A stretch of DNA of 64,000 nt from Hyalangium ruber (GTDB lineage Bacteria; Myxococcota; Myxococcia; Myxococcales; Myxococcaceae): assembly GCF_034259325.1 (NCBI RefSeq), contig NZ_JAXIVS010000002.1, forward strand, positions 124,001 to 188,000. Direction: 5' to 3'. Shown here piece by piece: positions 5,315 to 10,988 of the stretch. The number at the start of each line of letters is the position of its first letter. The first letter of the stretch is position 1. The notes beneath the pieces are model-generated. The model saw only the letters and a program-made list of their open reading frames with translations, made no database searches and was not told where the DNA came from. The position numbers and the translations under genes are program-made.

Positions 5315-6619
5315 TCAGGCCAGCAGGTTCGCGACTTCCAGGTACACGCCGCGGAAGTCTCCCTGCGCGCCAATGAGCCGCAGGTTCTGCGCCAGCCCTC
5401 CCGTGGAGCGGAAGAACATCACCGCTTCGGGAGGCGGGCGGATCTTCAGGAAGCGCACCGCGTTCTTGGCGAAGTGCTGCTTCATGTCGCGGCTGATCTC
5501 GCACGTGGCGAAGTCGTAGTCCGGGCTGCGCATGGGGCGGCCGGCGATGTGGAGGATTTCGCGGATGAGCGCCTCGGCCTCCGAGTCGGGCAGCTCCACG
5601 TGGAAGCCCACCTCGCGGCTCAGGCCGAGGATGTCCATGGACTCCAGCTTCATGGCGCCGAGGAACATGCGGCGGTTGGCGTCCACGAAGCGCTCGGAGA
5701 AGCGCTTGATGGAGCCGAAGTCCAACAGCCCCAGGCGCCCGTCCTTCATGACCATGAAGTTGCCGGGGTGCGGGTCGGCGTGGATTTCCCCGGCGCAGAG
5801 GAAGGGCCCGTAGATGGCGCGGATGAGCTGGCGCGAGACGCGGAAGCGCTCCTCGGGCGAAGGCTCGCCCACCACCCAGTCCTTGAGCGTCTGGCCCTCC
5901 AGCAGCTCGAGGGTGAGGACGCGCTCGGAGGAGCGCTCGGAGACGACCTCGGGGACCTTGAGGTCCGAGAAACGCGCGGCGCTCTGGACGAAGCCCTGAC
6001 AGAGGCGGGCCTCGCGGCGGTAGTCCAGCTCCAGGAGCAGCTCTTCGCGCATCTCCGAGAAGTAGGCGGTGCCGTCCATCACCTTGGACGTCTTGGAGAC
6101 GGTCTTCACCACCATGCCCAGGTTGTCGAGGTCGCCATGGAGGGAGTCGGCCACGCCGGGGTACTGCACCTTCACGGCGACGGGGCGCCCGTCCTCGAGC
6201 ACGGCGCGGTGTACCTGGCCCAGGGAGGCGGCGGCGAGGGGCTCGCGGTCGAACTCGCGGAAGAGGGCCTCGGGGGCAGCGCCAAGCTCCTGGCGGATGA
6301 CGCGGGCCACGGTGTCATAGCCCATGGCGGGCGCCTGGTTCTGCAGGCGGGCGAGCACCTGGCGCACCTCGGGGGTGAGCAGGTCCGGGTCCATGGAGAT
6401 GGCCTGGCCGAACTTCATGGCGGCGCCCTTGAGGTCCCCCAGGGTGGCGACGAGCTTGTCGGCCATGCCCTTGGTGAGCAGCTCCGACTCCTGTCCCGCG
6501 AGGCGCTTGGCGCCGCTCTTGAGCACGTCCGCGCCGAGCTGGGCGGACAGGCCCGCGAGCTTGCGGAAGCGTTGGAAGCGCCCCTGGGGCGGGAGCTTGT
6601 CGTCGGAGTCGGAGGCCAT
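5315..6619 (-). CDS. ABC1/AarF/UbiB-family atypical protein kinase
   Basis: A 434-residue member of the UbiB/AarF (ADCK) family of kinase-like ATPases, which in many organisms supports quinone or lipid metabolism. Diagnostic features are all visible: the KxGQ motif (KFGQAISMDPDLL), the Ala-rich loop replacing the P-loop (AAASLGQVHRAVL), the ATP-binding Lys in VAVKVQYPG, the conserved ELDYRREA, and the catalytic/Mg segment HADPHPGNFMV followed by GLLDFGS. ATG 6619 gives MASDSDDKL. A TTG at 6661 is the alternative. No C-terminal membrane helix is obvious, unlike E. coli UbiB. The substrate cannot be told from sequence. Confidence 0.9.
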   Translation of the reverse strand: MASDSDDKLPPQGRFQRFRKLAGLSAQLGADVLKSGAKRLAGQESELLTKGMADKLVATLGDLKGAAMKFGQAISMDPDLLTPEVRQVLARLQNQAPAMGYDTVARVIRQELGAAPEALFREFDREPLAAASLGQVHRAVLEDGRPVAVKVQYPGVADSLHGDLDNLGMVVKTVSKTSKVMDGTAYFSEMREELLLELDYRREARLCQGFVQSAARFSDLKVPEVVSERSSERVLTLELLEGQTLKDWVVGEPSPEERFRVSRQLIRAIYGPFLCAGEIHADPHPGNFMVMKDGRLGLLDFGSIKRFSERFVDANRRMFLGAMKLESMDILGLSREVGFHVELPDSEAEALIREILHIAGRPMRSPDYDFATCEISRDMKQHFAKNAVRFLKIRPPPEAVMFFRSTGGLAQNLRLIGAQGDFRGVYLEVANLLA

Positions 6620-6727
6620 GGAACCTGGGATGATTAACGGGGAGCCTGACCTTGGACGCAAGTCAGGCCTGCACGTTGCTCCCGTTCGTCCGGCTGCCGG
6701 GGGGGCGGGTTCAGTTGGAGGTGCGGC

Positions 6728-8299
6728 ATGTTCTCACGTCGTATTCCCAGAGCGGTGGTGCTGTTCCTCCTGCTGCTCTCCGCGTGCGCCACGGCCCCGT
6801 CCTCGAAAGGGGCTTCCAGCCGACGCCGCCCTTCCTGTGGGTTTGGCGGCGGCTGCGCCTTCTTCAATCAAGTACACAGGTCCGTGAGCATGCCCCGGCC
6901 GGCGCCTCGCACGTCCGAACCCTCAGGGGGCCTGGCGCCCATCGAGGCCCGGCACGTGGACGTGGATTACCTCTCCGGGTTGCTGGTGCGCGCGGGCGTG
7001 CCTCCCACCGCGCTTCCCCGAGACCGGCGCCCGCTCACGCCAGCGCAGGCCATCGCGCTGCTGAATCAGGTGCTGGAGGCACAGGTGCCGTTGAAGGACT
7101 TCGGTCCCTGGCGCATGGCGGTGTACCTGCTGCTGGAGGTGGTACACGGCGGCGCGGCGGTCCCCCCCCCGACGCTGCGGGAGCGAATGGCCCGCTTCGC
7201 CCCGTTGCTGGTGCTTCGACCGGATGGCTACCTGGTGCGGGCCACCACCGGCAGGGCCGTGCAACAGGCGGGACAGATGCGCTTCGAGGGCGGCGCTCTT
7301 CGGGCCGAGGGCTTCGCGGTAGGGCCGTTCTACCTGCCGCGCCAGGGCTTCCTCTACCCGGTGGATGAGACGTTGGAGATCCATCCGGATGCGGTGCTGG
7401 CCGGAGTGTACGTGCCGGACGAGGACACCCTGGGACCGATGCTGGAAGGCGTCGAACAAGCGGCGGTGGACAGCATTACCGGCCTGCTCTCCGTGGTGCA
7501 GCACCCGAGCGAGAGCCTGGAGGCGCTGGCGCGGCTGCCAAGCGTGGTGCGCACCCTGGTGGAGAACTCTCCCCAGTACTACCAGCACTTCCAGGCCGTC
7601 TCCCATGGGGAGCGGGTACGCCTCGTCTCACGGCTGGTGACCAATGTGGCGCTGGTGTGCCTCACGGCGGAGGCAGGCAGTGCGCGCGTGGCCTCGGCGG
7701 GTAACGCGCTGGGCAACCTGCGCGTGCCAGTGCTGTCGCTGTCGGCGCGGGGCACGTTGGCGCTGGAGCAGGTGGTGGTGCCCGCGGGTCGCGTGGTGAC
7801 GGCGGTGAGCGCTGCCCCCGGAGCGCTCTACATCGTCCACATGGCGGGCCGGGGCGCGGGCGGCGGGGGCGGAAACGGCGAAGGGGGCTCCTCCTGGAAG
7901 CCGCCGATTGGAGGCCCTGGGCGGTGGATTCAGAAGAACGAAGCGATGCTGGCCCCGGCAAAGCGCTACCAGGCGCAGGTGGGGCGTGCGCCGGAGGGCT
8001 GGGTGTACCGAGTGGAGCACGCGGGAGAAAAAGCGGATCTGGATGACTTCACCGGCACGAAGCTGGTGGAGGCCAAGGAGCCTGGCTACGCGAAGTTCCT
8101 GGATGATGAACTCAGTCCACTGGACTTCTTCGAAGGCTTTCGCGAGATGATCGCGACAGCACGGCGACAATATCGGGTCGCCCAGAACACACCCCTGCAA
8201 TGGATTGTCGCGGAGAAGAGGCTTGCCGACTATCTCCGCAAGGCCTTCGCACAGGCAGGACTGCGTATCGAGGTAGTCCACATTCCCGCGCAACCGTGA
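6728..8299 (+). CDS. Lipoprotein polymorphic toxin with C-terminal Tox-REase-5-like nuclease domain (SitA-like)
   Basis: A 523-residue protein with a lipoprotein signal: hydrophobic VVLFLLLL then the lipobox LLSAC, Cys20 being the lipidated residue. A long middle region without known motifs is followed by a Gly-rich linker (about 375-390). The C-terminal domain (about 412-515) has RYQAQVGRAPEGWVYRVEH, then DLDDFTGTKLVEAKEPG and RRQYRVAQNTPLQWIVAE. The D...EAK pattern is that of restriction-endonuclease-fold toxins (Tox-REase-5 type). In myxobacteria, SitA lipoprotein toxins of this build pass between cells by outer-membrane exchange; that role is inferred here. A GGAGG sits 8 nt before ATG 6728. 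The next gene, 13 bp downstream, looks like the matching Imm52-type immunity gene. Confidence 0.75.
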   Translation: MFSRRIPRAVVLFLLLLSACATAPSSKGASSRRRPSCGFGGGCAFFNQVHRSVSMPRPAPRTSEPSGGLAPIEARHVDVDYLSGLLVRAGVPPTALPRDRRPLTPAQAIALLNQVLEAQVPLKDFGPWRMAVYLLLEVVHGGAAVPPPTLRERMARFAPLLVLRPDGYLVRATTGRAVQQAGQMRFEGGALRAEGFAVGPFYLPRQGFLYPVDETLEIHPDAVLAGVYVPDEDTLGPMLEGVEQAAVDSITGLLSVVQHPSESLEALARLPSVVRTLVENSPQYYQHFQAVSHGERVRLVSRLVTNVALVCLTAEAGSARVASAGNALGNLRVPVLSLSARGTLALEQVVVPAGRVVTAVSAAPGALYIVHMAGRGAGGGGGNGEGGSSWKPPIGGPGRWIQKNEAMLAPAKRYQAQVGRAPEGWVYRVEHAGEKADLDDFTGTKLVEAKEPGYAKFLDDELSPLDFFEGFREMIATARRQYRVAQNTPLQWIVAEKRLADYLRKAFAQAGLRIEVVHIPAQP

Positions 8300-8312
8300 G
8301 GATGGTTCCCGG

Positions 8313-9038
8313 ATGATCGAGACGTACTACGTGGGTGCTTACTGGCTGGGCCGCAGGGAACCAGCGAGGGCATGCGCCCAACGCGCCGAACACTTCTTTC
8401 GCCTGCTGACCCGACTGGATCCGTCGTGGAGTCGCTGGTTCCGCGTGAAGCAGTCGCGCGAGCAATCCTTGAAGCACCCTGTCGAGCCCACGGCTGCGAC
8501 GTTCGAGGCCGCCTTCGCGCAGAAGAAGCACCAACTCCCCGAACATGGCTTCCGGTTCGGCATATGGAACGTCGAGCAGCAAGGCCAGTCCACGGAGATT
8601 GATTTCACCTGCGGCTCCTCCTCCCGCTTCGCCGTGGATGTGTGCCTGCTCCAGCCTCCAGATGAGGGGGCTGTCGCGGAGCGCGTGCTCACCACCGCCA
8701 TGATGACCGAGGTGCTCCGCGCCATGGTCCTGGCCTGGGAGCCCGACAAGGGCGTGGTCATGTCCAATGCGCACCTGGAGAAGGTCTCTCCTGATCCGTC
8801 TACGGCCCCGCACCTGCTGGTGGGCTGGATGACCTACCTCTCACGCCGTCGAGGCGAGGTGCCAGCCCTGCCCCAGCCCGTGCGCGTGGAGCCGGTGGAG
8901 GACAAGGGCTCGCTCATCATCCTCACCCCCGAGCGCTTCACCCTCTCCAACCCCACCCACGTGGAGCTGGCTACGCGTGTCTGGGAGCGGCTGGATCAGG
9001 CAGGGCTGGCGGGTCCCACGCGTCCCTGGGAAGAGTGA
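8313..9038 (+). CDS. Imm52-like immunity protein
   Basis: A 241-residue soluble protein without a signal peptide. Its start (IETYYVGAYWLGRREPARACAQRAEHFFRLLTRLDPSWSRWF, read as separated motifs: YYVGAYW, AEHFF, LDPSW.RWF) matches my recollection of the Imm52 family, which is typically encoded beside Tox-REase-5 toxins. The gene begins 13 bp after the toxin stop with a GAGG about 12 nt upstream, so the pair forms a toxin-then-immunity operon. The expected role is to bind and block the toxin's nuclease domain in the cytoplasm. The family assignment is from memory and position; the direct evidence is adjacency and the N-terminal motifs. Confidence 0.7.
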   Translation: MIETYYVGAYWLGRREPARACAQRAEHFFRLLTRLDPSWSRWFRVKQSREQSLKHPVEPTAATFEAAFAQKKHQLPEHGFRFGIWNVEQQGQSTEIDFTCGSSSRFAVDVCLLQPPDEGAVAERVLTTAMMTEVLRAMVLAWEPDKGVVMSNAHLEKVSPDPSTAPHLLVGWMTYLSRRRGEVPALPQPVRVEPVEDKGSLIILTPERFTLSNPTHVELATRVWERLDQAGLAGPTRPWEE

Positions 9039-9056: not shown

Positions 9057-10988
9057 TCAGCGGCCCGCGCCTTCCGCGGGGGGGGTGGCCCGCACCCGGT
9101 TCCTCAACGAGCGCCAGATCTTCAGCGCCTCGAGGTGGAGCGGATCCACCCGCAGCGCGGCCTCGTAGGCGGCGAGCGCCTCGGGCAGCTTCCCCTGCGC
9201 TGCGAACGAGGCCCCCGTCACCATGTGCAACATGGCGTGGCCCTCCGGCACGCGGTGGTGCTCCAGGAAGCGGCGGCGGCACCCCTCCAGCGCCGTCACC
9301 GTGAGCCCCGCCGACAGGCAGCGCAGCAACCCCTCCAGGTTGCGCAGCCCCGCGTCATACTCCGCGCGCCGCTCCGGGTGCCCCAGCACGTGCAGCGCCT
9401 CCGCCACGCGCTCCAGTGCCCGCTCCACCTGGGCCCGCTGGCCCGCGGACAGCGGCAGCTTCATGAGCGGCTCGAGCGCCAGGCGGGCCTCGCGAGCCCC
9501 CACTCGCACCGCGTCGAAGTCGGCCTCGCACGGCACGCCCAGCACTCCGTAGTGGTCCCCACGCAGCCGGCCCCGGAAGCGCTGGAGCACCGAGTCCGCT
9601 CGCGTGTTCTGGTGCTCGACGCCCAGCGGCGGCGTCTGTGGCGCCACCCGCTCGCCAGCGATCAGCCGCTCCAGGGCGTCCAGGAAGCCCGGCGCCGAGT
9701 CACGCAGCTGCACCGCGAAGCCCGGCGCCATGCGCCACTCCCGCGCCTGCGCCACCGACACGTGCCGAACCACCTGTCCCGTACACGCCAGCTCGCCCCC
9801 GGGCAGTCGCAACAACAACCCCACGTCCTCCAGCAGCGGCGGCGGCACGCCCTCGGTGTGCAGGAAGAGGCCCCCGCGACCCACGCGATCGCAGCGCAGC
9901 TCCATCGAGCCCGCCGCTCCGCTCATCCTCACCCGCGCCGTGAACACCGGAGCAGCGGGCCTGGGAGCAACCGTCGCCTGGAGCGCCTCGCGCAGCTCCG
10001 CGGCGGAGGCGAAGCGCTGCTCGGGGCGCTTGGCCATGGCCCGCACCAGCACCCGCGAGAGGGCCTGCGGCACGCCCGGGCGGGCCTCGTGCGCCAGCGG
10101 CGGCGGCTTCTGCAGGTGTGCCAGCAGCAGCTCCGCCGGGCGCCCGTTGAAGGGCAGCGCTCCCGTGAGCAGGAAGTAGCCCAGCACGCCCACCGCGTAC
10201 AGGTCCGCGCGCGCATCCACCGCCTCGCCCACGCACTGCTCGGGGGACATGAACTCCGGAGTCCCCAGCAGCACGCCGTTCTGGGTGGGCGTCATGTCCG
10301 TGGGGTAGTCCAGGAGCTTGGCGATGCCGAAGTCCAGCAGCTTCACCCGGTGGCGCCCGTTGCCTCCAGGCACCAGGAAGACGTTGGCCGGCTTGAGGTC
10401 CCGGTGGACGATGCCGTGGGCGTGCGCGGCCCCGAGCGCGTCACACACCTGGGTGAGCAGATCCACCGCGAGCGCCGGCTCCAGCGGGCCCTTCACGAAC
10501 GCGGAGAGGCTCTGCCCCTCCAGGTACTCCATGACGAGCGAGGGGCGCCCGTCTCGCATGTCGAGGTCATAGATGGAGACGACGTTCTCGTGCTGGATCA
10601 GCGTGAGCGTGCGCGCCTCGGAGAGGAAGCGAGACACCAGCCGCTGATCCCTCGCCAGGTGCTCGTGCAGCACCTTCACCGCCACGCGCTTCTGGATCAA
10701 CGTGTGCTCGGCCAGCCACACCGTCCCCATGCCGCCCCGGCCCAGCTCGCGCACCACCTCGAAGCGGCCGAACCGCTGGCCGATGAGCCCACGCGCCTCC
10801 TCGACGGGTTCCTGCCAGGGCAGCACCCTGTCCCGCCGCGCCTCCGCCGGGGCTCCCGCCGGGCGGATCAGCGTGACGCACCCGGTGGATTCCGGATGCG
10901 GCGTCTCACAGGTGCATGAGGAAGGCTGAGAGAGCACTGGGACACTGGGGCGAGAGGGAACGAACGACGGTATGCCCCTATGCGACAA
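9057..10988 (-). CDS. Ser/Thr protein kinase fused to PilZ-like, J-like and TPR regions
   Basis: Hanks-type kinase domain at about 78-340: GRGGMGTVWLAE glycine loop, VAVKVLHEH Lys, HRDLKPANV catalytic loop, DFGIAK and the activation segment ending SPEQ. After it comes a PilZ-like domain (about 350-445; DRVGRGGLFLHT, without an obvious RxxxR). A J-domain-like segment follows (about 478-545; DHYGVLGV ... HPERRAEYDAG, no HPD visible). A TPR-like end lies at about 590-625 (GKLPEALAAYEAALRVDPLHLEALK). No transmembrane helix is seen. The furthest start is TTG 10988; GTG codons further in (for example codon 18) are possible, and the first 60 residues look non-domain. It is likely cytoplasmic. The gene converges on the immunity gene with an 18-bp gap. 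Confidence 0.85.
   Translation of the reverse strand: MSHRGIPSFVPSRPSVPVLSQPSSCTCETPHPESTGCVTLIRPAGAPAEARRDRVLPWQEPVEEARGLIGQRFGRFEVVRELGRGGMGTVWLAEHTLIQKRVAVKVLHEHLARDQRLVSRFLSEARTLTLIQHENVVSIYDLDMRDGRPSLVMEYLEGQSLSAFVKGPLEPALAVDLLTQVCDALGAAHAHGIVHRDLKPANVFLVPGGNGRHRVKLLDFGIAKLLDYPTDMTPTQNGVLLGTPEFMSPEQCVGEAVDARADLYAVGVLGYFLLTGALPFNGRPAELLLAHLQKPPPLAHEARPGVPQALSRVLVRAMAKRPEQRFASAAELREALQATVAPRPAAPVFTARVRMSGAAGSMELRCDRVGRGGLFLHTEGVPPPLLEDVGLLLRLPGGELACTGQVVRHVSVAQAREWRMAPGFAVQLRDSAPGFLDALERLIAGERVAPQTPPLGVEHQNTRADSVLQRFRGRLRGDHYGVLGVPCEADFDAVRVGAREARLALEPLMKLPLSAGQRAQVERALERVAEALHVLGHPERRAEYDAGLRNLEGLLRCLSAGLTVTALEGCRRRFLEHHRVPEGHAMLHMVTGASFAAQGKLPEALAAYEAALRVDPLHLEALKIWRSLRNRVRATPPAEGAGR

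What the first reader, a model, noticed from the sequence alone, without database searches (positions are those of the whole stretch)
6728..9038. Lipoprotein toxin and Imm52-like immunity pair
A lipobox-bearing protein ends in a Tox-REase-5-like domain (DDF...LVEAKEPG) and is followed by an Imm52-like gene. A lipid anchor on a nuclease toxin makes sense for SitA-type toxins passed by outer-membrane exchange. If correct, this is a kin-discrimination locus.
Basis: partly seen in the sequence, partly recalled or inferred. Interest (0 to 1): 0.6.

Follow-up and report, generated by a model that had tools for sequence, protein, structure and literature searches.

The report
Myxobacterial kin-killing lipoprotein toxin with antidote
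This is a two-gene cassette of a predatory soil myxobacterium: a membrane-anchored DNA/RNA-cutting toxin that is probably handed to neighbours when cells fuse their outer membranes, and the antidote that spares sister cells; it is a clean but divergent new copy of the known SitA/SitI kin-recognition system.

Summary
Window 6728-8299 encodes a 523-aa lipoprotein (lipobox LSAC) whose C-terminus is Tox-REase-5 (PF15648, 38.6 bits); 8313-9038 encodes Imm52 (PF15579, 283.8 bits). The modelled toxin domain superposes on Pseudomonas TseT, solved with its Imm52 antidote TsiT (Z 16.1).

The SitA reading is well supported. The N-terminal 300 aa is an "escort domain" of SitA3 type: its profile also hits a Myxococcus-type protein combining that domain with the CdiA_C toxin published for SitA3. 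Published SitA3-Mf1 carries this same Tox-REase-5 toxin. The genome has TraA with an OmpA-domain, TraB-like neighbour, 32 SitA5 proteins, five SitA3-type proteins with Tox-REase-5, and 13 Imm52 genes, 12 beside a toxin. The cassette is a clean ~2.3-kb insertion between two conserved genes that adjoin in nine other genomes. Escort and toxin trees conflict, so the toxin module was swapped.

It is a new member of a known kind. Its escort domain (37-42% to SitA3 proteins) is more divergent than the published range (51.8%).

Side finding: in Leifsonia poae, a Gram-positive without TraA, a SitA3-like escort domain sits in a contractile-injection (eCIS) cargo protein.

The parts
6717..6721 (+). Shine-Dalgarno GGAGG of the toxin gene
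   Evidence: sequence
6728..8299 (+). sitA-like gene: lipoprotein polymorphic toxin, 523 aa
6728..6787 (+). type II signal peptide and lipobox LSAC (Cys20); +2 is Ala, so no inner-membrane retention signal by the myxobacterial rule (no Lys at +2, no Ala at +7)
   Evidence: sequence; rule quoted in PMC5562445
6788..6961 (+). low-confidence, probably disordered linker after the lipobox (residues 21-78)
   Evidence: pLDDT under 50 for residues 18-78
6953..7861 (+). SitA3-type escort domain (residues 76-378); well-folded N-half about residues 80-230, low-confidence helical and mildly hydrophobic C-half
7913..8296 (+). Tox-REase-5 nuclease domain (residues 396-523), restriction-endonuclease fold as in TseT
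8042..8077 (+). predicted PD-(D/E)XK active site: Asp439, Glu448-Ala-Lys450
   Evidence: alignment of five relatives; family motif FDG...EAK quoted from Zhang et al. 2012
8313..9038 (+). sitI-like gene: Imm52 immunity protein, 241 aa
   Evidence: relatives 42-50% identical in this genome
6690..9058 (.). approximate extent of the sitAI cassette as an insertion between two core genes that lie about 95 bp apart in relatives
5315..6619 (-). left flank: UbiB/ABC1-type kinase, conserved neighbour, not part of the cassette
9057..10988 (-). right flank: Ser/Thr protein kinase, conserved neighbour, not part of the cassette

Best explanation
The pair is a sitAI cassette of the SitA3 type, without sitB. 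Step 1 (sequence shown): the toxin is made as a lipoprotein and anchored in the outer membrane. Step 2 (inferred; the machinery is present): on contact with a cell bearing a compatible TraA, TraAB exchange outer-membrane material and the toxin moves to the neighbour. Step 3 (inferred from SitA chimeras in the literature): the escort domain carries the C-terminal domain through the periplasm and inner membrane, using a host protein set by the escort type. Step 4 (fold and motif shown, activity inferred): the Tox-REase-5 domain cuts DNA, possibly RNA, in the cytoplasm. Step 5 (inferred; homologous complex solved): Imm52 made by clonemates binds and blocks the domain, so only cells lacking this allele die. 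The cassette adds one allele to a large set that together marks self.
For: Toxin and immunity profiles. Toxin domain model matches TseT of the TseT-TsiT complex, Z 16.1 over 123 residues; Imm52 profile from this locus hits solved Imm52 proteins including TsiT, E 8e-8. Escort-domain profile hits 64 of 96 genomes of the GTDB family, and the ED-plus-PF18451 protein in G075/G076 has a lipobox and, in G075, a SitB-like gene upstream, matching published SitA3-Mx. Published SitA3-Mf1 has PF15648 and works in chimeras (PMC8546572). TraA present with a TraB-like neighbour. 32 SitA5 ORFs over cut-off plus five SitA3-type ORFs with toxin domains, in line with 25-80 sitAI loci per genome in the literature. 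Clean empty site in G036, G038, G039 and six more genomes. Toxin swap: escort tree joins window with L002/L037 (100/98), toxin tree joins it with L038/L039 (96/91); AU tests p 0.0151 and 0.00096; the immunity gene sides with the toxin (p 0.0271 against the escort grouping).
Against: No functional data for this locus. The escort domain is only 37% identical to the SitA3-Mx-like protein and 42% to an M. fulvus-like one, below the 51.8% published minimum among 17 SitA3 escort domains, so it may be its own family with another entry route. The AU groups were named after seeing the trees. The FDG motif reads LDD here. A homologous escort domain occurs in a genome without TraA, in an eCIS protein.
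Confidence: 0.88

Rival explanations
1. The protein is a lipoprotein polymorphic toxin, but delivered by a route other than outer-membrane exchange, such as surface display or release in outer-membrane vesicles; TraA is present in the genome for other reasons.
For: A SitA3-like escort domain occurs in an eCIS cargo protein of a Gram-positive without TraA, so this domain does not require exchange.
Against: All published SitA families with this layout depend on TraAB (PMC8546572); genomes with full-length relatives also hold TraA in 11 of 11 cases checked, one of them (G103, Corallococcus exercitus) by a partial match under the cut-off; the lipobox follows the outer-membrane rule.
Confidence: 0.07
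2. The pair is a decayed or silent relic rather than an active weapon.
For: The FDG motif has changed to LDD and PF15648 scores lowest here among those compared (38.6 against 43.5-62.0 bits); an orphan Imm52 elsewhere in the genome shows that such loci decay.
Against: Both frames are intact, the toxin gene has a good ribosome-binding site, Asp439, Glu448, Lys450, Gln481 and Trp492 are kept, and the fold is predicted with pLDDT above 85.
Confidence: 0.05

Closest known systems
SitA3-SitI3 of Myxococcus fulvus (SitA3-Mf1, Tox-REase-5 toxin domain; PMC5562445, PMC8546572)
   Same: lipoprotein, SitA3-type escort domain, Tox-REase-5 toxin domain, adjacent immunity gene, no sitB
SitA3-Mx (MXAN_1899), CdiA_C tRNase
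   Same: escort domain homologous along 293 residues
   Different: other toxin domain, sitB upstream, 37% escort identity
TseT-TsiT (PA3907-PA3908) of Pseudomonas aeruginosa, type VI secretion effector and Imm52
   Same: same toxin fold and same immunity family
   Different: delivered by type VI secretion, no lipid anchor, no escort domain
SitA5 family (NF050093) with Tox-REase-5
   Same: seven loci of this genome pair the same toxin and immunity families
   Different: another escort domain; the window protein has no NCBIfam hit

Membership tests
SitA lipoprotein toxins (general) | outer-membrane lipobox | tested here: met
   LSAC, Ala at +2, Ser at +7 (sequence); no signal-peptide predictor run
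SitA lipoprotein toxins (general) | conserved escort domain followed by a variable C-terminal nuclease | tested here: met
SitA lipoprotein toxins (general) | cognate sitI directly downstream | tested here: met
   Imm52, 13 bp downstream
SitA lipoprotein toxins (general) | traAB in the genome | tested here: met
   TraA 1058 bits; OmpA/TSP_3 protein at the TraB position
SitA lipoprotein toxins (general) | TraAB-dependent transfer and killing | not testable with these tools
   needs competition assays
SitA3 family in the published sense | escort domain homologous to MXAN_1899 | tested here: met
   the profile that includes the window scores 378.6 bits on the G075 protein with PF18451; that this is MXAN_1899 or its ortholog is inferred from architecture
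SitA3 family in the published sense | escort identity within the published range (51.8% or more among 17 members) | tested here: not met
   36.9% to the SitA3-Mx-like and 41.8% to the M. fulvus-like protein; hence 'SitA3-type', not SitA3 in the narrow sense
Tox-REase-5 toxins | PF15648 over cut-off, motif residues, PD-(D/E)XK fold | tested here: met
   FDG reads LDD
Imm52 immunity proteins | PF15579 over cut-off | tested here: met
   283.8 bits
SitA5 family | NF050093 escort profile | tested here: not met
   no NCBIfam hit up to E 1

The most novel reading that the evidence does not exclude
The SitA3-type escort domain is a self-contained cell-entry module that is not tied to outer-membrane exchange: a homologue in an eCIS cargo protein of the actinomycete Leifsonia poae (eCIS core domain, escort domain, SitA6-like toxin domain) would use the same module to bring a nuclease into a target cell after a different first delivery step, and stand-alone N-halves beside a kinase gene would be its non-toxin cousins.
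Probability: 0.35. Interest if true: 0.65.

Novelty: new member of a known kind. Interest (0 to 1): 0.4.

Why it matters
It adds a deep, untested branch of escort domains to the SitA3-type toxins, present with many paralogues in one genome: 12 Tox-REase-5/Imm52 pairs split over two escort types plus one orphan antidote, a good test bed for cross-immunity. How SitA nucleases cross the inner membrane is open; a homologous escort domain in an eCIS cargo of a Gram-positive narrows the question, since there it cannot be a feature of outer-membrane exchange. The empty sites and the escort/toxin tree conflict show how the barcode grows: whole cassettes go in and out of core intergenic gaps, and toxin-antidote modules are exchanged behind a kept escort domain.

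Tried and rejected
SitA5 membership: rejected, no NF050093 hit. Mobile carriage: the window's escort domain has no match in plasmids or phages, and the profile scan of viral contigs confirmed none. sitB: none upstream; the neighbour is a UbiB-type kinase on the other strand. A known fold for the escort domain: Foldseek against PDB and BFVD gave no significant match, VIA-align best Z 4.7, on low-confidence helices; this does not show that the fold is new. Recombination of Tox-REase-5 domains between SitA3 and SitA5 escorts within this set: not shown, the SitA5 toxins form one side of a branch (93/90). Comamonas sp. KCTC 72670 as a non-myxobacterial host: rejected, that 9-Mb genome carries TraA, so the title is probably wrong. 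Strain-level comparison: no other genome of the genus is held.

Full report
What is there. Window 6728-8299 encodes a 523-aa protein beginning MFSRRIPRAVVLFLLLLSAC, a type II signal with lipobox LSAC, behind a GGAGG ribosome-binding site; 8313-9038 encodes a 241-aa protein 13 bp downstream. Pfam gives Tox-REase-5 (PF15648) at residues 412-496 with 38.6 bits, and Imm52 (PF15579) over the second protein with 283.8 bits; both cut-offs are 25. The +2 residue after the lipid-bearing cysteine is Ala and the +7 is Ser, so by the myxobacterial rule quoted in PMC5562445 the protein should go to the outer membrane.

Toxin and antidote. AlphaFold2 with 24 relatives models residues 390-523 with pLDDT 85-97. 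That part superposes on TseT of the P. aeruginosa TseT-TsiT complexes with Z 16.1 (9oz0, rmsd 1.6, 123 residues) and 15.5 (7dym); the next chain has Z 5.9. The profile of the Imm52 proteins hits solved Imm52 proteins, TsiT among them, at E 8e-8. TseT is a Tox-REase-5 DNase, and Burkholderia homologues cut DNA and RNA (PMC9990079). The predicted catalytic residues Asp439, Glu448 and Lys450 are kept, as are Tyr414, Gln481 and Trp492; the FDG motif reads LDD. So the toxin-antidote pair is secure by sequence and fold; activity is inferred.

The genome. The window lies in a 10.77-Mb assembly. It holds 12 Tox-REase-5 ORFs and 13 Imm52 genes; 12 Imm52 genes directly follow a toxin, and one (C3:296684-297379) is an orphan. 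Five toxins share the window's N-terminal domain; the two of the other seven that were scanned carry the SitA5 escort profile, and all seven positions coincide with SitA5 matches in the genome search, which finds 32 SitA5 ORFs over the cut-off. TraA is present with 1058 bits and is followed by an OmpA/TSP_3 protein as expected for TraB.

The escort domain. A profile of residues 76-378 and 19 relatives hits 64 of 96 genomes of the GTDB family. In G075 and G076, unnamed 9.2-9.3-Mb genomes of the group, the domain is in one ORF with CdiA_C (PF18451), has a lipobox, and in G075 follows a gene with a signal peptide like sitB. Published SitA3-Mx has just these features and its toxin domain is PF18451; published SitA3-Mf1 has Tox-REase-5, has no sitB, and worked in competition and in chimeras (PMC5562445, PMC8546572). 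I therefore call the window protein SitA3-type. Its escort domain is however 37% and 42% identical to the two SitA3 proteins compared, while the two most divergent of 17 published SitA3 domains are 51.8% identical and already use different host factors. The tree shows three deep clades; the window's clade (with Hyalangium, Archangium, Myxococcus and Pyxidicoccus members) and that of SitA3-Mx are distinct, each at 100/100.

Polymorphism. Relatives with the same escort domain end in Tox-REase-5, CdiA_C, DUF2380-like or other HNH-like domains. The escort tree joins the window with L002 and L037 (100/98), the toxin tree with L038 and L039 (96/91); holding the alternative grouping is rejected in both (p 0.0151 and 0.00096), and the immunity gene rejects the escort grouping (p 0.0271) but not the toxin grouping (p 0.504). 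The groups were chosen after the trees were seen. The G+C content drops from 70.8% in the escort domain to 62.8% in the toxin domain and 65.8% in the antidote. This fits a toxin-antidote module swapped in behind a kept escort domain.

Empty site. The flanking UbiB-type kinase and Ser/Thr kinase genes are neighbours, without a sitAI pair, in G036, G038 and G039 (genus g8, the genus closest by UbiB identity) and in G006, G029, G034, G035, G059 and G075; in L154 the gap is about 95 bp. The cassette is thus an insertion of about 2.3 kb confined to the intergenic gap, with no mobile gene of its own. In G040, G041 and G042 of the same genus the neighbourhood is rearranged. Direction (gain or loss) is not proven, but absence across several genera favours gain.

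Mechanism. Shown: lipobox, escort domain, nuclease fold, antidote, exchange receptor, presence/absence and module swap. Inferred from the published SitA work: outer-membrane placement, TraAB-dependent transfer, cytoplasmic entry by the escort domain, killing of cells without this Imm52. The low-confidence stretch after the lipobox (residues 18-78) agrees with the disordered region that PMC8546572 proposes as a release site. The escort domain has a confidently modelled N-half (about 80-230) and a low-confidence, helical, mildly hydrophobic C-half; no known fold was matched.

Beyond exchange. The scan of 84,980 species with two escort motifs returned only myxobacterial records apart from one probably mislabelled 'Comamonas' (its 9-Mb genome has TraA) and Leifsonia poae. 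The Leifsonia protein has an eCIS core domain (PF13699, E 4e-28), the escort domain (profile 366.6 bits) and a DUF2380 toxin domain, the toxin type of SitA6 (PMC12077181). Its genome lacks TraA and carries sheath, tube, Pvc16_N, baseplate and a second eCIS-core gene about 18 kb or more away on the same contig. One of 150 genomes of that family has it, so it is probably a horizontal acquisition. The 2017 paper found no homologues outside the Myxococcales. This is the most unusual observation here, but it concerns a relative, not the window.

Verdict. The locus is an ordinary but divergent member of a known system; its main interest lies in the deep escort clade and in the eCIS link.

Noticed in passing
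L062:5425-7176 (Leifsonia poae, G097:C13), L172: SitA3-like escort domain in an eCIS cargo protein (PF13699 + escort + DUF2380) of a Gram-positive genome without TraA, about 18 kb from a contractile-injection gene cluster.
   Followed up: partly
L065:2081-2731, L066, L067, L068, and G000:C9:231589-232050 (L013, L031): Stand-alone lipoproteins of about 220 aa that match only the N-half of the escort domain. In L065, L066, L068 and L031 a Ser/Thr kinase gene follows directly. One of these genomes (C. sicarius, G108) has no TraA match.
   Followed up: partly
G000:C3:296684-297379 (L030): Orphan Imm52 gene without a neighbouring Tox-REase-5 toxin, next to a protein kinase ORF.
   Followed up: partly
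G000:C1:197741-198721 (L029): Second, partial TraA-like ORF (425 bits over the first half of the TraA model) with a repetitive Gly/Asp/Ser-rich C-terminus.
   Followed up: no
L055 (record titled Comamonas sp. KCTC 72670): 9-Mb genome with TraA and SitA3-type loci, so the record is probably a mislabelled myxobacterium.
   Followed up: partly
G000:C4:113428-113937 (L169): Phage-sheath homologue in the window's own genome, possibly a contractile system.
   Followed up: no
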